This document shows, piece by piece, positions 2,598 to 8,852 of a DNA stretch of 23,486 nt (its first letter is position 1; every line of letters starts with the position of its first letter). Location: IMG/VR virus record IMGVR_UViG_3300027970_000146, positions 1-23,486 of that record; one strand, written 5' to 3'. The notes beneath the pieces are model-generated. The model worked only from the letters and a program-made list of their open reading frames with translations. It ran no database searches and was not told where the DNA came from. The position numbers and the translations under genes are program-made. The DNA is from a virus.

Positions 2598-4385
2598 TTA
2601 TCCGTTTTTTATAATATTATAGTGATGCATCTCAATAAGCTGCTTAGCCTCTTTTTTAAGATACATTATTTGTATTTTTTGAAATGATTGTTTTTCTTTG
2701 TCCCAATACAAAACATAAATCTGTCGACACTTTCTTTTAGGGAACTCTAACTCGTACATATAAGCATATACACTTAACTGCAAAGTGTACACAGACCATT
2801 GACAAGCTTGAAGATGCTCAAAAGGTTTTAATAGCGTTTCATAACCATATGGGTTATAAAAATTAAAAACACGATTTGTATTATGTGTTACAATAAAACT
2901 ATGACCGAATAAAAATGTATGTTTTGGGCTCTTGACCTCAATACATATCGTTGGCTCTGATTCTACTTTATTAACTGATACAATATTTATATGATGACAA
3001 AAACTATTTCTAAATTCAATATTTATATCTTGATTTCTAACTAAAAATGGGTTTAAATAATGTGAGGTAAAACAAACATCGTAAGCAATAAATGTTTTAC
3101 CACTTAATTTTCGGTTAGTTGTTATGATTGTTGCTTTAAGCCCCAAGCTAGACACTAACATATTTATTGCATTGGCTTGCCATTTTCTGGTAGTTGACAT
3201 GACAAACCTATTTCTTTTTTTATTATAATACCCATCAGCATCCATAAGCCCTCTTAACACATCTAATCTTTGATTGAAAGATGAATTTAAAAAAACATCT
3301 GGTAATTGTTTATTTTTTAATACTCCAAGCTTATTCAATTCATGTGTCAAACCAAAAATAGTTCTAGTACTAGCCAAACCAGAACCACCACCAGAGATAT
3401 CCTCCCCAATTTTATAACCTCTTTTTTCTATTTCAGACCACACATTTTCATCCATGTTTGTTATTTTCCCATCAGCTGAATGTCCATCACCTAACCAAAC
3501 ACCAAAAACATATGGGTCTATTGGTAAATTAGCTATATCGATTTCTAATGGTCTAGCGCAAACAATTTTAGGTATTTTCCAAGAATATCTTTTTTTACCT
3601 TTTGGTAAAGTTTTCATGTAATCAAATAACTCTATTGTTGTCATAACAACATCTTTATATTTTTTTTCTCTTAAAAAAGAAACTAACCATCTATGTTCAA
3701 AATCAGAAACTATTTTTTCACCAGTATCAAAAGTAATTTCGTAACAATCTTTATTTTTAATGTCTGATATTGCTTTAATTTCTGTTTGACACCCATCACT
3801 ATCAAAAACTTTGTCTTCTAATGTCAATGTTCCCATTGTTTTCCACCCATTAGACGTAAATATTGGAGTGTTTAATGGTAACCCTTTATAATCAGCAACA
3901 TCAAAAAAGACATCATTTATATCAATAATCAAGTCTGAAGTACCAGCAAGTTCGTATTGTTCAGAAAACAATATTCTTTCTGGCCACATCGCATCGCCTT
4001 CTTCAATATTCAACGCATTGTAACCGTCAATAACTTTTTGTTCAAAGATACCCTCTTCATTGTCTTCTGGAAAATACCACTTATTCGCAAGTAAATAACG
4101 CTCAACAATATCATGAACCTTGCTACCGTATACGTTAGCTTCATCATTCAACAACTGCCAATAATCCAAAATTTGTTGTTGAGACAAACCAATATAGCGT
4201 TCTTGTTTAACGTTATCAGGTTGTCTTGTAATAGCCAACGAAACACCTTCAGCATCAAAATGTGGTTCAATTGATGACAAAGTAGTTGTAACTGATTTGT
4301 ATATCTTACCAGTCTCTCTATGATGATATTTATGTTGTATCGGTTCTAAGTAAATTATTGATTCCCACTTTTTAATTTTAGCCAT
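2598..4385 (-). CDS. RecB/Cas4-type PD-(D/E)XK nuclease interrupted by an in-frame intein
   Basis: The precursor is 595 aa; excising residues 168-502 leaves a nuclease of 260 aa. The extein has every motif of the RecB-type PD-(D/E)XK family: GSKVHDIVE near residues 87-95 (GxxxHxxxE), GTSDLII near 148-154 (metal-binding Asp), DYK at 165-167 joined after splicing to TNR, and LQLSVYAYMYE in the C-terminal part (QxxxY). Such enzymes are DNA exonucleases used in recombination or DNA processing. The intein lies exactly between Lys and Thr of DYK-TN, so unspliced protein should be inactive. I chose ATG 4385 over the in-frame ATG 4451 because a promoter-like element lies at 4391-4421 and the longer start would overlap the divergent acetyltransferase gene. 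The leader from this promoter would be nearly absent. The gene is divergent from the acetyltransferase gene, and the glycosyltransferase follows after 58 bases. Confidence 0.9.
   Translation of the reverse strand: MAKIKKWESIIYLEPIQHKYHHRETGKIYKSVTTTLSSIEPHFDAEGVSLAITRQPDNVKQERYIGLSQQQILDYWQLLNDEANVYGSKVHDIVERYLLANKWYFPEDNEEGIFEQKVIDGYNALNIEEGDAMWPERILFSEQYELAGTSDLIIDINDVFFDVADYKGLPLNTPIFTSNGWKTMGTLTLEDKVFDSDGCQTEIKAISDIKNKDCYEITFDTGEKIVSDFEHRWLVSFLREKKYKDVVMTTIELFDYMKTLPKGKKRYSWKIPKIVCARPLEIDIANLPIDPYVFGVWLGDGHSADGKITNMDENVWSEIEKRGYKIGEDISGGGSGLASTRTIFGLTHELNKLGVLKNKQLPDVFLNSSFNQRLDVLRGLMDADGYYNKKRNRFVMSTTRKWQANAINMLVSSLGLKATIITTNRKLSGKTFIAYDVCFTSHYLNPFLVRNQDINIEFRNSFCHHINIVSVNKVESEPTICIEVKSPKHTFLFGHSFIVTHNTNRVFNFYNPYGYETLLKPFEHLQACQWSVYTLQLSVYAYMYELEFPKRKCRQIYVLYWDKEKQSFQKIQIMYLKKEAKQLIEMHHYNIIKNG
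2880..3884 (-). mobile_element. Class 3-type intein with LAGLIDADG homing endonuclease
   Basis: A 335-residue intein in the nuclease gene. It starts GLPLNTPIFTSNGW, with Gly instead of the usual Cys or Ser at position 1, and ends FIVTHN, followed by Thr as the +1 residue. Block B contains FEHRWLV (His B:10, Trp B:12), block F contains TICIEV (Cys F:4), and block G has Thr just before the terminal His-Asn (G:5). This Trp-Cys-Thr set is the known signature of class 3 inteins, in which the block F Cys, not residue 1, makes the first attack. Between the splicing blocks are two dodecapeptide motifs, FGVWLGDG and LRGLMDADG, both with their catalytic Asp, so the homing endonuclease may be active. 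The boundaries are fixed because removal rejoins DYK to TNR, restoring a standard RecB-family motif. Confidence 0.9.
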
Positions 4386-4390
4386 ATTCG

Positions 4391-4421
4391 CAAATATACG
4401 ATAGTTTGTTATGGTATGCAA
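4391..4421 (-). promoter_or_regulatory. Bacteroidota-type promoter for the RecB-like nuclease gene
   Basis: On the minus strand TTG at 4421-4419 is followed by 20 bases and then TATATTTG at 4398-4391. Only 5 bases separate the -7 box from the ATG at 4385, so the transcript should be leaderless or nearly so. The upstream box touches the upstream region of the divergent plus-strand gene. Confidence 0.6.
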
Positions 4422-4422
4422 G

Positions 4423-4430
4423 TATTTATA
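4423..4430 (+). promoter_or_regulatory. TATTTATA motif upstream of the acetyltransferase gene
   Basis: The octamer TATTTATA lies 12 bases before the ATG at 4443 and is followed by ATAAAAG. The same octamer, read in gene direction, lies 14-15 bases before two other starts here. It could be a phage-specific promoter element, but it also occurs by chance within coding DNA. Confidence 0.3.
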
Positions 4431-4442
4431 ATAAAAGTTACC

Positions 4443-4940
4443 ATGAGTCAATTAGTTAAAAAATTATTACGTGAAGCTTTAACTGTACCATCGTTTAGGG
4501 TACCAAAAGATATAAAATTTAGCAATGATGAAAAACTAGCAATAAAAAATGTTAGTTGGGAAGACCTTAAAATAGAAGATTTAGGTGGTTCTGGAAATAT
4601 TGCTCATTTAGGTGTCAACCTACCATTTGAATCAGCCGCATCGGATGCTATTGTTGTTGATATTCAAGTGATTAAAGATATGATATATCAAATACATATG
4701 CATTTGCCAGAAGATTTAAGAGGATTAGGGTTAGGGTATAAAATATACAAAGCGGTTATACATGATTTAGGACATTTGTACTCTGGTAAAGGTAGACGAT
4801 TAAACCAAATGGTTGCAAAAATATGGGATAAATTAAAAAACGACCCAGATTTTGAATGTGTTTCAAGTGAATTAGGCGATTTGTGCATGATTAAAAATCA
4901 TCCTAACAAAGAAGAACTAACTCAATTCGTTGTAGGTTAA
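4443..4940 (+). CDS. GNAT-family N-acetyltransferase-like protein
   Basis: This 165-aa protein is the only plus-strand gene. Residues 91-104 (DLRGLGLGYKIYKA) match motif A of GNAT acetyltransferases, R/Q-x-x-G-x-G/A, which binds the pyrophosphate of acetyl-CoA. The segment just before it (VVDIQVIKDMIYQIHMHLP) is the expected preceding beta strand. The C-terminal segment with NQMVAKIWDKL looks like the conserved helix of phage GNAT proteins. The substrate is unknown; phage GNATs may modify host or phage proteins. The N terminus is a short basic helix (SQLVKKLLREAL) separate from the catalytic fold. ATG 4443 was preferred to ATG 4416 because the shorter form starts cleanly at this helix and leaves the promoter region free. 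Its 3' end overlaps the convergent primase gene by 24 bases. Confidence 0.7.
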   Translation: MSQLVKKLLREALTVPSFRVPKDIKFSNDEKLAIKNVSWEDLKIEDLGGSGNIAHLGVNLPFESAASDAIVVDIQVIKDMIYQIHMHLPEDLRGLGLGYKIYKAVIHDLGHLYSGKGRRLNQMVAKIWDKLKNDPDFECVSSELGDLCMIKNHPNKEELTQFVVG

Positions 4941-5935: not shown

Positions 5936-5963
5936 AAAAAGAGATAATTAATTATCTCTTTTT
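5936..5963 (-). terminator. Palindromic terminator at the end of the RuvC-like gene
   Basis: Bases 5936-5949 (AAAAAGAGATAATT) are a perfect inverted repeat of 5950-5963 (AATTATCTCTTTTT). The T run at the end of each arm gives a U tract in either direction, so it could work for both strands. It covers the stop codon of the RuvC-like gene and lies just before the primase promoter. The stem has few G/C pairs, so strength is uncertain. Confidence 0.6.
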
Positions 5964-6604
5964 TTATTTTGATTAAACCATGCTAAACCACATGTATAAG
6001 CATCACTCATGTCAAAATTTTCTTTTTTTAATTTATTGTGTTTATCTAAAATCCATTTTATTTGGGGTTCTAAATCACATACTTTTTCAAATATTACCAT
6101 TTTTTTATCCACATCGAATGGGTAATCTCCAAATAAAACTGGTTCGTTTTTGGCTATTTGTTTTTCTGATAACGGGGTGCCATCTTTTTTAGCTTTTCTA
6201 ACAGCCATTAATTCTGGAAACGCATATTTACGAGCATCATATGATGAAATAAAATCTGGTACTATACCTATTGTGTCAAACACAGATTTTGATATCATAC
6301 CGTTAAAACGTAAAAGAGTTGCAATTGTATATACGTTATTTGATTGAAGAAGCGGTTCTTCAATGATAACTTTTGTAATACCAAAATCAGCGTATTTGTT
6401 TAAAAATTCAGTCTGGAAGATTTCAACTTTTTTAAAAAGTTCTTCCATTTTGTTTTCTGGTTTTGGGTTTACCTTTGGGCTAACGTGATGTAATAATTTA
6501 AGTTCGCCATTATCTCCTAAATCCTCAAACAAAGCGATGCCTATTGTGGATGTTGACACATCCAGACTTAACAAAAACTCTGGGTTATTATTTTTTTTAT
6601 CCAT
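5948..6604 (-). CDS. RuvC-like Holliday-junction resolvase (RNase H fold), N terminus replaced
   Basis: The 218-aa protein has the acidic active-site pattern of RuvC-family junction nucleases: D15 in LSLDVSTSTIG, E82/E83 in KVIIEEPLL, and D198 with D201 in FDMSDAYTCGLA. It would cut branched DNA during recombination or before packaging. ATG 6604 is used because residues 9-18 (EFLLSLDVST) align with the upstream gene remnant at 7558-7605 (NFILALDVST); the in-frame extension to 6643 overlaps the GIY-YIG gene and is not conserved in that remnant. The gene begins 10 bases after the GIY-YIG stop, and no Bacteroidota-type promoter is seen directly upstream, so it may now depend on transcription through the inserted cassette. 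It ends inside a perfect palindrome that probably terminates transcription. Confidence 0.8.
   Translation of the reverse strand: MDKKNNNPEFLLSLDVSTSTIGIALFEDLGDNGELKLLHHVSPKVNPKPENKMEELFKKVEIFQTEFLNKYADFGITKVIIEEPLLQSNNVYTIATLLRFNGMISKSVFDTIGIVPDFISSYDARKYAFPELMAVRKAKKDGTPLSEKQIAKNEPVLFGDYPFDVDKKMVIFEKVCDLEPQIKWILDKHNKLKKENFDMSDAYTCGLAWFNQNKKRDN
6550..6564. repeat. 15-bp direct repeat, left copy (in RuvC-like gene)
   Basis: ATGTTGACACATCCA occurs here and again at 7560-7574, offset by exactly 1010 bases. On the minus strand it encodes the DVST residues of the RuvC active site. It marks one junction of the inserted homing cassette. Confidence 0.85.
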
Positions 6605-6614
6605 TCTAACTTGT

Positions 6615-7355
6615 TTATTTTTTATGCTTCCAGATAAAACCACCAGAAGTTTTAATTTTATTATTAGTACACTGTCTTATTGATTTAGCTGATAAGTTTA
6701 AAACATTTGCAGCTGTAGTTGCACTACCAAATTCCCGTATGAACTCACCGTTTTTGGTATATTGTTCAACTGGTTTAGCGTTTGGGTGTTTATCACCAGT
6801 AAATTGCCCTTTATGTGCCACACTTAGCTTTTTCTTTAGTTCGATTGCTTTTTTTTCACCATAAAAGTCACCATAAGTTTTACCATCTTTTTCAGATATA
6901 CGACCTTTACATGATTCACTTAATTTTTTTTTGTGTTCTTCACTTCTTGGTTCACCTGTATTCATCCAAGAAAGTGGTTTACCTTTTCTTATTTCAGACA
7001 TTTGTTTTATTTGTTCTGGTGTTTTTTTAACACCTAAAGAACTACCAGCAATTTTACATATATTATAACCTAAATCAACGTTATATGATTCGTACAAATC
7101 TAAATAATATTGTTCTCTAAGTAATAATGTTTCTTTTGTAAATTCTTCAATTATCTCTAATATTTCAAAAACAAATGAGTCTTCACCATATTTATTCCAC
7201 GCTCTTTGTAAATGTCTAGAATGGTGTTTATTTTGTCTTAAATCATTTAAATGATATGACCATCTTTTTTTAAAACCACATTTATTTCCAGTACTACCAA
7301 TATAAACTTTATTGTTAGCCAGATTAACTATTTTATAAACACCATTATTTTTCAT
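6615..7355 (-). CDS. GIY-YIG homing endonuclease with NUMOD repeats
   Basis: The 246-aa protein starts with a GIY-YIG nuclease domain: GVYKIVNL and KVYIGST supply the GIY/YIG halves, KKRWSYH gives the catalytic Arg, and LLREQYYLD the catalytic Glu, with GYN behind it. Three basic NUMOD3-type segments follow (around TPEQIKQMSEIRKGK, SEEHKKKLSESCKGR and ELKKKLSVAHKGQ), then a NUMOD1-like C-terminal DNA-binding module (EFGSATTAANVLNLSAKSI, ending GGFIWKHKK). This is the build of I-TevI/Seg-type homing endonucleases, which cut alleles lacking the element and drive its spread. Its start overlaps the end of the small upstream gene by 11 bases, suggesting coupled translation. The ruvC-like gene follows after 10 bases. 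Confidence 0.92.
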   Translation of the reverse strand: MKNNGVYKIVNLANNKVYIGSTGNKCGFKKRWSYHLNDLRQNKHHSRHLQRAWNKYGEDSFVFEILEIIEEFTKETLLLREQYYLDLYESYNVDLGYNICKIAGSSLGVKKTPEQIKQMSEIRKGKPLSWMNTGEPRSEEHKKKLSESCKGRISEKDGKTYGDFYGEKKAIELKKKLSVAHKGQFTGDKHPNAKPVEQYTKNGEFIREFGSATTAANVLNLSAKSIRQCTNNKIKTSGGFIWKHKK

Positions 7356-7494
7356 AAAAATATTTATTTAATAATCTTTCAATAAATTCCGATTTATTAT
7401 TAGTTTCATAATTAATTTTTTCATATAATTCTCTAGATATAGTTACACCTAATCTAATTTTTTTATCTTCTTCTTTTAATTTTGGTCTTGCCAT
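7345..7494 (-). CDS. Small ribbon-helix-helix-like protein, 49 aa
   Basis: ATG at 7494 opens a 49-codon frame ending TAA at 7345, overlapping the GIY-YIG start by 11 bases. The protein begins MARPKLKEEDKKIRLGVTIS and continues RELYEKINY...KSEFIERLL. A basic N terminus, a short strand (RLGVTIS) and two helices is the pattern of ribbon-helix-helix DNA-binding proteins, which act as dimers. It may regulate the endonuclease gene or be a passenger that binds the cassette; this is inference from position. A TATTTATA motif lies 15 bases before its start. Confidence 0.7.
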   Translation of the reverse strand: MARPKLKEEDKKIRLGVTISRELYEKINYETNNKSEFIERLLNKYFYEK

Positions 7495-7509
7495 AATATT
7501 TATCTTTAT

Positions 7510-7517
7510 TATAAATA
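7510..7517 (-). promoter_or_regulatory. TATTTATA motif upstream of the ribbon-helix-helix-like gene
   Basis: Read on the minus strand, CATATTTATAATAAAG precedes the ATG at 7494, with the octamer 15 bases away. It is the same motif as at 4423, 11006, 11039 and 12868. It would give the homing cassette its own promoter if functional. Confidence 0.3.
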
Positions 7518-7557
7518 TGTTGATAAAACCAAAAAGTTGTATTTAAATGAAATTTTT

Positions 7558-7605
7558 TCATGTTGACACATCCAAGGCCAATATAAAATTTGGTTCTTTT
7601 TGCAT
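7558..7605 (-). pseudogene. 5' remnant of the original ruvC-like gene
   Basis: ATG at 7605 encodes MQKEPNFILALDVST followed at once by TGA. It matches the N terminus of the intact RuvC-like protein (NPEFLLSLDVST) residue for residue in the last part, and ends at the catalytic DVST where the cassette joins. It is the severed start of the pre-insertion gene. Confidence 0.75.
7560..7574. repeat. 15-bp direct repeat, right copy (in ruvC remnant)
   Basis: Second copy of ATGTTGACACATCCA, at the other junction of the homing cassette. Identity stops abruptly on both sides at the nucleotide level, while protein similarity continues towards the N terminus. Confidence 0.85.
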
Positions 7606-7649: not shown

Positions 7650-8852
7650 TTATAAATTTATTTTTACACTTAAAGCCAAAAATTCATTTATATTTTTTGT
7701 AACTTGTCTATCAGTTTTAGCAACAGCTAATAAATTACCCAAGTTATCATATAACCCAACTTCCGAAATTCTGACAACATCTGAACCTGAGAATGTTGGA
7801 TTTGTGGATATTCCAAATTCACCTCTAGCAGCAATACATGTTATATTTTGATATATTGATGTTGATATGCTGTCAAATGTTACAGTAGCAGCTGTTAAAG
7901 TAACTGAATCATAATCTGTAATAATCTGAGGATTCGTGATGACCACAAAGCCTTTATCAAGATATGCAATACCAACAATGGTGTCAGCAGTGGTTGCGAG
8001 ACTGCTATTCGTTTGTAAGTTGTAAAGTTGTTTACCATTAACACTAAAAGGTTTTGTAGTACCATAACCAGTTGCCCAGCTTAATGAACCAGAACCGCCA
8101 TTTGGTGTTGTTATGTTATCAGAAAACAACATTGCAATGTTATCATCTAGATAATCAGTTACTACTGATGTGTCTCTTATGTTAGCGTCTTGAACTAATA
8201 AAGAACTTCCATCATTTTGGAATGTACTGTATATGGTATATGTACCAGCACTAGTGGGTAATTCTATTTTTACTGTTTTACCATCAATACACTCACCATA
8301 ATTAGCATTGTTTATTCCTAAAACTAATATATTTGTTTGTGCTATTGCACTCAATGCTGTATCTGAATAACCACCACTAGCAAAAGTAATTCCAGTATAT
8401 GTCTCGTCATCAGATGAATTCAAAGGTAAACCAAATGAATAAAATAGATTCACCAAAGCGTCTGTATTATAATCATTTCTGTCAATTAATACTTGCGTTA
8501 AATTACTACCGCTAACAGTTGTAAATCCGTTTGAAAGCAAATCCGTAGATATTGTGATTGATTGCTGTTCTACTGGTTTTCTTAATAAACCACTAGGATT
8601 TACAATTATTGGAGATTTTATTCTGGCGTTTTGAGCTGTGCTATTACTAAAAGTTGCGTTTGCACCAATTTCACCAGCTTCAGCTGGAATTTCACCAGTT
8701 GATAAAGTCAATGGAACGTAATAGTTTGCGTCTGAATCCCCCAAAGAAAATGTGGCGATAAGCGCATTGTTTGTAGATACCATTTTTTGCCTACCTAGTG
8801 GTGTTAACTTAGCTGTTAACGTAATTGTATTTGCTGTTGATAAAAATCCCAT
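7650..8852 (-). CDS. Fibre-like structural protein, paralogue of the next gene upstream (400 aa)
   Basis: The first 45 residues contain LTPLGRQKM at 16-24 and LGDSDANYY at 37-45, and the last 40 contain RISEVGLYDNLGNLLAVAK. The neighbouring 711-aa protein has equivalent blocks at the same ends. A conserved start, variable middle and conserved EVGxYD end also recall tail-collar/fibre proteins of the DUF3751 type. Low-complexity Ser/Thr/Asn-rich beta-type sequence fills the middle. It probably forms or attaches part of a tail fibre; receptor contact is inference. It is the last gene of the structural run, and the ruvC remnant begins 44 bases beyond its stop. No signal peptide or membrane segment is seen. 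Confidence 0.6.
   Translation of the reverse strand: MGFLSTANTITLTAKLTPLGRQKMVSTNNALIATFSLGDSDANYYVPLTLSTGEIPAEAGEIGANATFSNSTAQNARIKSPIIVNPSGLLRKPVEQQSITISTDLLSNGFTTVSGSNLTQVLIDRNDYNTDALVNLFYSFGLPLNSSDDETYTGITFASGGYSDTALSAIAQTNILVLGINNANYGECIDGKTVKIELPTSAGTYTIYSTFQNDGSSLLVQDANIRDTSVVTDYLDDNIAMLFSDNITTPNGGSGSLSWATGYGTTKPFSVNGKQLYNLQTNSSLATTADTIVGIAYLDKGFVVITNPQIITDYDSVTLTAATVTFDSISTSIYQNITCIAARGEFGISTNPTFSGSDVVRISEVGLYDNLGNLLAVAKTDRQVTKNINEFLALSVKINL

What the first reader, a model, noticed from the sequence alone, without database searches (positions are those of the whole stretch)
6550..7605. Homing cassette interrupts a ruvC-like gene and restores it with a divergent N terminus
A 15-bp repeat (ATGTTGACACATCCA) flanks about 1 kb containing a ribbon-helix-helix-like gene and a GIY-YIG gene. 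Upstream lies a dead fragment, MQKEPNFILALDVST-stop; downstream the gene restarts as MDKKNNNPEFLLSLDVST and continues. The two starts are homologous but not identical, so the element carried a related 5' end from another allele. This gives a mobile element that lands in an active-site codon of an important gene while supplying a replacement exon, without needing an intron or intein.
Basis: partly seen in the sequence, partly recalled or inferred. Interest (0 to 1): 0.7.

Follow-up and report, generated by a model that had tools for sequence, protein, structure and literature searches.

The report
Phage endonuclease cassette repairs gene it breaks
In several different uncultured phages a selfish DNA-cutting gene sits inside the start of a DNA-repair (RuvC-like) gene but carries a substitute start for that gene, so it can invade an important gene without splicing and without destroying it.

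Summary
On the minus strand, a dead ruvC 5' fragment (MQKEPNFILALDVST*, 7605-7558) is followed by a cassette with a small RHH-like gene and an intact GIY-YIG/NUMOD homing endonuclease, then a full RuvC-like gene with a different 5' end. Relatives in IMG/VR settle the reading. The nearest relative (L003) is uninterrupted and reads MQKEPKFILALDVSTSTIGIA. Six further distinct phage contigs carry the same arrangement, always broken just after the DVST codons. They use two different endonuclease families. The replacement 5' block moves with the cassette: it is 97-100% identical between alleles whose gene bodies are only 68-72% identical, and only 50-69% identical to empty sisters whose bodies are 89-97% identical. 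Most replacement starts overlap the endonuclease's 3' end. No group I intron or intein was found, and the model has a RuvC fold. The same design occurs at a uracil-DNA glycosylase gene, and mirror-image 3'-end versions exist. Fungal mitochondrial mobile ORFs that replace gene C-termini are the closest precedent. This is a phage, 5'-end version: a new variant of a known kind. Cleavage and mobility were not tested.

The parts
7558..7605 (-). dead 5' fragment of the native ruvC-like gene (MQKEPNFILALDVST, stop)
   Evidence: 42 of 45 coding bases match the start of the uninterrupted sister L003
7560..7574 (-). upstream copy of the 15-bp repeat TGGATGTGTCAACAT (DVST codons of the native allele); left edge of the cassette
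7495..7559 (-). cassette leader, conserved in the related cassettes (TTTCATT-AAATACAA-TTTT ... ATATTTATAATAAA)
   Evidence: comparison with L004, L016, L067, L083
7345..7494 (-). 49-aa ribbon-helix-helix-like gene, 86-94% identical in the four related cassettes
   Evidence: Pfam RHH_1 only below cut-off
6615..7355 (-). GIY-YIG homing endonuclease gene with NUMOD3 and NUMOD1 DNA-binding motifs
6563..6604 (-). replacement 5' block of ruvC carried by the cassette (MDKKNNNPEFLLSL)
   Evidence: 50% identical to sister L003 over 36 nt while the gene body is 89% identical
6550..6564 (-). downstream copy of the 15-bp repeat; the codon of the likely catalytic Asp15 is 6560-6562
6500..6564 (-). probable co-conversion tract brought in with the cassette (78% identity to L003, against mostly 85-95% further on)
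5948..6604 (-). restored RuvC-like resolvase gene, 218 aa
   Evidence: phrog_159; RuvC fold

Best explanation
This is a free-standing homing endonuclease cassette that invades the coding sequence of a phage RuvC-like resolvase at the conserved DVST codons around its first catalytic aspartate, and that carries a substitute 5' end for the gene. Proposed cycle: the endonuclease cuts an empty ruvC allele near GATGTNTCAAC. The break is repaired from a cassette-bearing genome. On the left, homology is the dead 5' fragment; on the right, it is the gene body. The recipient's own 5' end is cut off as a dead stub upstream. The endonuclease and the divergent replacement 5' end are copied in, and a complete in-frame gene is restored without an intron, an intein or splitting the protein. 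The replacement 5' end has to differ in sequence, which would stop the enzyme from cutting the restored copy and hinder recombination between the two starts that would delete the cassette. Shown here: the anatomy, the recurrence, the empty alleles, the shared fate of block and cassette, and the conversion tracts. Inferred: cutting, homing, cleavage immunity, and translation of the restored gene.
For: Uninterrupted sister L003/L046 with the predicted sequence. Same architecture in L004, L083, L016 and L067 (RHH plus related endonuclease) and in L054-56 and L244 (a different GIY-YIG, no RHH), all broken after DVST(S/K). The 36-nt 5' block is 97-100% identical among L004, L083 and L032 although bodies are 68-72%; 1062 pairs of empty alleles with bodies below 75% reach at most 83%. 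Cassette or relic versus sister: body/block W-L003 .89/.50, L032-L037 .97/.69, L016-L076 .94/.53; control pair of empties L027-L076 .89/.97. The 14-mer TTAAGTCTGGATGT spanning the junction occurs only in the window, L004, L006, L007, L083 and the L032 group among 83 alleles. Identity drops next to the insertion and recovers with distance. Decay stage L006/L007. Endonuclease ORF intact with GIY-YIG, NUMOD3 and NUMOD1. No Rfam intron. Restored protein models as RuvC with pLDDT 94.
Against: No cleavage or mobility data. All cassette-bearing loci are metagenomic contigs with no cultured member, and ruvC has no match in 50,697 phage records. The source allele of the window's MDKKNNN block was not found. 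L067 has the same LSL residues in its dead and live copies, so immunity by the LAL to LSL change is not universal. The start codon of the window's live gene (ATG at 6604, or an upstream GTG) is not proven.
Confidence: 0.85

Rival explanations
1. The insert is a spliced intervening sequence: a group I intron (or an intein) whose endonuclease gene is seen, with the dead fragment as exon 1.
For: The endonuclease belongs to a subfamily named group I intron endonuclease (TIGR01453), and intron insertion at conserved codons is common.
Against: No Rfam match in the window or seven related loci, nor in the cassette at E up to 5. The downstream gene already has a complete homologous 5' end and models as a complete RuvC fold. 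The upstream frame ends at a stop, so an intein is excluded.
Confidence: 0.04
2. The endonuclease gene lies harmlessly in the spacer, and the short upstream ORF is an unrelated or functional leader peptide.
For: The fragment has its own start and stop, and several relatives keep a start codon in it.
Against: The fragment is the start of the sister's intact ruvC at 42 of 45 bases. In all seven distinct occupied loci it is a ruvC start ending at the same codons, and in L016 the Asp codon is already mutated to Tyr. In the UDG cases it is a UDG start instead.
Confidence: 0.04
3. A local tandem duplication of the ruvC 5' end came first, and the endonuclease gene later landed between the two copies.
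For: It would give the same gene order.
Against: The two copies in the window are too different for a recent duplication, while the dead copy matches the sister. The 5' block is shared across lineages with unrelated bodies only where the cassette is or was. No duplicated allele without cassette DNA was seen among the 80 ruvC loci.
Confidence: 0.05
4. The cassette arrived by ordinary homologous recombination between phages, and the endonuclease is only a passenger.
For: Phage genomes are mosaic (general knowledge), and one relative has lost most of the endonuclease gene (L006/L007).
Against: Two unrelated endonuclease families arrived at the same codons of ruvC, and the same design recurs at another gene. 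Conversion tracts centre on the insertion point.
Confidence: 0.08

Closest known systems
Fungal mitochondrial mobile ORFs (mORFs) that replace gene C-termini: Allomyces macrogynus atp6; Glomus sp. atp6, atp9, cox2, nad3 (PMC3630166)
   Same: An endonuclease gene sits beside a foreign copy of a gene end. The native end is displaced and resembles that of the sister species, the inserted end is divergent at DNA level, and the hybrid gene stays in frame without splicing.
   Different: There the 3' end is replaced and the genes are mitochondrial, mostly with LAGLIDADG enzymes. Here the 5' end is replaced, in phages, with GIY-YIG enzymes, and the new start overlaps the endonuclease gene.
Introns carrying duplicated host-gene fragments in Tremella fuciformis mitochondria (PMC7315562)
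   Same: Partial replacement of a gene by a mobile element that brings a foreign gene fragment.
   Different: The duplicated piece resembles the exon that follows the insert, some cases are true introns, and the genes are mitochondrial.
T4 free-standing seg/mob endonucleases and intronless homing (review PMC2988022)
   Same: Free-standing phage GIY-YIG genes spread by double-strand break repair with co-conversion of flanks.
   Different: Seg/mob genes mostly lie in spacers, with cut sites hundreds or thousands of bases away. Here the gene lies within a coding sequence at the inferred cut site and carries a replacement gene end.
Insertions that split a gene: Aeh1 mobE in nrdA, T4 mobA in gene 60 (PMC2988022)
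   Same: An endonuclease gene inserted into a functionally critical part of a phage gene.
   Different: Those leave two polypeptides that reassemble. Here one full-length protein is restored by a substitute 5' end.

Membership tests
GIY-YIG homing endonuclease | GIY-YIG catalytic domain | tested here: met
   PF01541 E 8e-10, above cut-off; invariant Y7, Y18-I-G20, R31, E81, N98 in the family alignment
GIY-YIG homing endonuclease | NUMOD DNA-binding modules | tested here: met
   NUMOD1 and NUMOD3 above cut-off
GIY-YIG homing endonuclease | occupied and empty alleles at one conserved site | tested here: met
   L003 and about 50 other distinct empty ruvC alleles; seven distinct occupied loci
GIY-YIG homing endonuclease | cuts empty alleles and is inherited preferentially | not testable with these tools
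   needs biochemistry and crosses
Mobile ORF with gene-end replacement (fungal mitochondrial type) | displaced native end retained and similar to the sister species | tested here: met
   dead fragment 42/45 bases identical to L003
Mobile ORF with gene-end replacement (fungal mitochondrial type) | foreign, divergent replacement end in frame with the gene | tested here: met
   block 50% identical to sister, body 89%
Mobile ORF with gene-end replacement (fungal mitochondrial type) | the replaced end is the C-terminal one | tested here: not met
   the 5' end is replaced here; 3'-end cases exist elsewhere in phages (L140, L293, L032)
Group I intron | group I intron RNA around the endonuclease gene | tested here: not met
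   no Rfam match
Split-gene insertion (mobE/nrdA type) | two separate functional polypeptides | tested here: not met
   one polypeptide with a complete RuvC fold; the other part is a 15-residue stub
RuvC-like resolvase | RuvC fold | tested here: met
   top PDB matches are RuvC (7xhj, 6lw3, 1hjr), TM-score to target 0.66-0.75; phrog_159 E 3e-8
RuvC-like resolvase | four conserved acidic catalytic residues | tested here: met
   invariant D15, E82/E83, D198, D201 in 51 sequences
RuvC-like resolvase | Holliday-junction cleavage | not testable with these tools
   needs an enzyme assay
Ribbon-helix-helix protein | RHH fold or profile match | tested here: inconclusive
   RHH_1 15.5 bits, below the cut-off of 20.5; model of low confidence with two helices in the expected places

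The most novel reading that the evidence does not exclude
Phages host a general class of splicing-free, gene-end-replacing homing cassettes. Endonuclease genes of several families independently adopt the same solution: carry a recoded 5' or 3' end of the target gene, so that they can occupy the most conserved codons of important genes, restore the gene, and make it immune to their own cutting. They thereby pass gene ends between phage lineages and leave a stratified record of dead starts, as in L191, which has two.
Probability: 0.55. Interest if true: 0.72.

Novelty: new variant of a known kind. Interest (0 to 1): 0.62.

Why it matters
Introns and inteins are the textbook ways for a homing endonuclease to live inside an essential gene. 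This is a third way in phages: replace the damaged end instead of splicing. It explains duplicated short gene starts beside endonuclease genes that annotation pipelines would miss, shows how short terminal gene segments move between lineages with unrelated bodies, and gives clean natural alleles (empty, occupied, decayed) for testing how such an element avoids cutting its own host gene.

Tried and rejected
Target-site duplication: rejected, because the two repeat copies are not identical in relatives. Group I intron and intein: rejected. Split gene with two working halves: rejected, because the second gene is complete. Cultured examples: 12 reference-phage endonuclease loci (crAss-like, Acinetobacter, Bacillus, Xanthomonas) showed no duplicated gene ends, top score 37, and the window's ruvC has no match in the phage records. 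A scan of bacterial genomes gave three distant ruvC-like loci whose flanks I did not examine. High flank scores judged not to be gene-end replacement: L319/L301 and L277; L235 and L133 were not pursued. A promoter reading of TATTTATA in the cassette leader was dropped: the motif is scattered over the window. The RHH model is too poor for fold comparison. No uninterrupted donor allele with the MDKKNNN start was found. Literature searches of the held library returned no phage paper with gene-end replacement, but the library lacks most subscription journals.

Full report
WHAT IS THERE. The window is a 23,486-base virus record. All parts lie on the minus strand. Reading downstream: the end of a virion-type gene (stop at 7650); a dead ruvC start, MQKEPNFILALDVST-stop (7605-7558); a leader; a 49-aa RHH-like gene (7494-7345); a 246-aa GIY-YIG gene overlapping it by 11 nt (7355-6615); and the ruvC-like gene starting MDKKNNNPEFLLSLDVSTSTIGIA (6604-5948). 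The 15-bp repeat is exact and spaced 1010 bases apart.

IDENTITY OF THE GENES. The endonuclease has GIY-YIG, NUMOD3 and NUMOD1 above Pfam cut-offs and falls in NCBIfam's 'group I intron endonuclease' subfamily. The interrupted gene has no significant Pfam or NCBIfam match but hits PHROG 159, RuvC-like resolvase. An AlphaFold2 model from 51 relatives has pLDDT 94, and its best PDB matches are RuvC proteins. Invariant acids D15, E82/E83, D198 and D201 fit the RuvC catalytic set, so the duplicated DVST codons carry the first catalytic aspartate (the correspondence to RuvC residues rests on general knowledge of the family).

EMPTY ALLELES. A scan of IMG/VR with the ruvC protein returned 80 loci. 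The nearest, L003/L046, is uninterrupted and reads MQKEPKFILALDVSTSTIGIALFED. Against L003, the last 200 nt upstream of the window's insertion, dead start included, are 89-92% identical. The first 60 nt after the insertion are 78% identical. Further on most windows are 83-95%. This is what repair from a diverged cassette-bearing donor would leave.

RECURRENCE. The same order, dead start ending at DVST then cassette then complete ruvC with another start, occurs in L004, L083, L016 and L067, with the same RHH plus endonuclease family. It also occurs in L054-56 and L244, with a different GIY-YIG enzyme and no RHH gene. That makes seven distinct occupied loci including the window, with two enzyme families at the same codons. 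L006/L007 are L004-like alleles with most of the endonuclease deleted, a decay stage. In six of the seven loci the restored gene has an ATG 11-35 nt inside the endonuclease's 3' end; in the window the first ATG is 10 nt beyond the stop. The element therefore also supplies the start codon.

THE REPLACEMENT END TRAVELS WITH THE CASSETTE. The 36 nt before the DVST codons are identical in L004 and L032 and differ at one base in L083, although the gene bodies are only 68-72% identical. Among 1062 pairs of empty alleles with bodies below 75% the highest value is 83%. Against near sisters the pattern reverses: W-L003 body .89, block .50; L016-L076 .94 and .53; L032-L037 .97 and .69; a control pair of empties, L027-L076, has .89 and .97. 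L032 has no dead ruvC start, so it looks like an allele that lost the cassette but kept its 5' block. Identity to L037 rises from about 89% next to the DVST codons to 100% some 300 nt away.

NOT A SPLICING ELEMENT. No Rfam match was found in the window or seven related loci, nor in the cassette at relaxed thresholds. The upstream fragment ends at a stop, and the downstream gene is complete.

OTHER GENES. A systematic comparison of the two flanks of endonuclease genes (153 distinct loci; 912 random pairings gave at most 40) put the ruvC cases at 43-71 and found more. In L111 a uracil-DNA glycosylase is broken as MNWEKFKNKFYIFV-stop and restored as MEIQKKGKLSWEKFSSKFHPSWH, starting inside the endonuclease's last codons. 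Uninterrupted relatives read MNWEKFKDQFHESWH. L191 is a second such case with two dead starts in a row, as if invaded by a cassette that already carried a dead start; the join lies at ATGA. Mirror images that duplicate a gene's 3' end occur in L140 (a 5-hmdU kinase helical-domain gene), in L293 and in the gene upstream of ruvC in L032. Twelve loci of reference phages showed nothing comparable, so the arrangement is a minority one.

MECHANISM. The best account is homing within coding sequence. The enzyme cuts the conserved codons. The dead stub and the gene body provide homology, and the cassette brings both itself and a recoded gene end. The recoding is expected on two grounds: the restored site must resist the enzyme, and the two starts must not recombine the cassette away. 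Establishment at a new site probably needs only one homologous side, the left join being made at a few bases, as the ATGA join in L191 suggests. Shown: anatomy, recurrence, empty alleles, linkage of block and cassette, and conversion tracts. Inferred: cutting, immunity, mobility, expression.

COMPARISON WITH WHAT IS KNOWN. Fungal mitochondrial mORFs (Allomyces atp6; Glomus atp6, atp9, cox2, nad3; PMC3630166) do the same at the 3' end of genes, and Tremella mitochondria have introns with duplicated host-gene fragments (PMC7315562). T4's free-standing endonucleases cut far from their own position, and the mobE and mobA insertions split their host genes (PMC2988022). A survey of phage endonucleases (PMC10448857) discusses introns, inteins and split genes; gene-end replacement did not appear in the passages I searched. 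The system works like the fungal elements but replaces the opposite end, in phages. I call it a new variant of a known kind.

LIMITS. All occupied loci are metagenomic contigs. No enzyme was assayed. The donor of the MDKKNNN block is unknown. The paper library is incomplete, so an earlier description in phages cannot be excluded.

Noticed in passing
window 2598-4451 (minus strand): An exonuclease-like ORF (PHROG 298) is interrupted by what looks like a LAGLIDADG intein (GLPLNTPIFTSNGW ... FIVTHN); its first residue would be Gly rather than Cys or Ser, so its class and activity deserve a check.
   Followed up: partly
L168-L180: Small proteins similar to the cassette's RHH-like protein (MGRPKIKQEDKKI..., MKPRKKEEDKKI...) directly precede and overlap HNH endonuclease genes in other phages, so a small RHH-like gene coupled to a homing endonuclease may be a wider module.
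   Followed up: partly
L111:2900-4535 and L191:1100-2800: A uracil-DNA glycosylase gene is broken by a GIY-YIG cassette and restored with a substitute 5' end; L191 shows two nested dead starts.
   Followed up: yes
L140:900-1830 and L293:1430-2160: Endonuclease genes flanked by duplicated 3' ends of the preceding gene (a 5-hmdU kinase helical-domain gene in L140), the mirror image of the ruvC case.
   Followed up: partly
L032:2620-3300: A second GIY-YIG gene sits at the 3' end of the gene upstream of ruvC, with that gene's native 3' end displaced behind it; the same 1-kb region has thus been invaded from two sides.
   Followed up: partly
L312:1560-2510: An HNH-like endonuclease gene lies just before a terminase-like gene and is flanked by a 27-nt direct repeat whose second copy supplies that gene's start codon.
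   Followed up: no
alignment A2, columns 190-266 (P0002, L083-L085, L016): The DNA-binding C-terminal parts of the RHH-linked endonucleases come in two kinds while the catalytic parts are nearly the same, which suggests module swapping linked to different replacement ends.
   Followed up: partly
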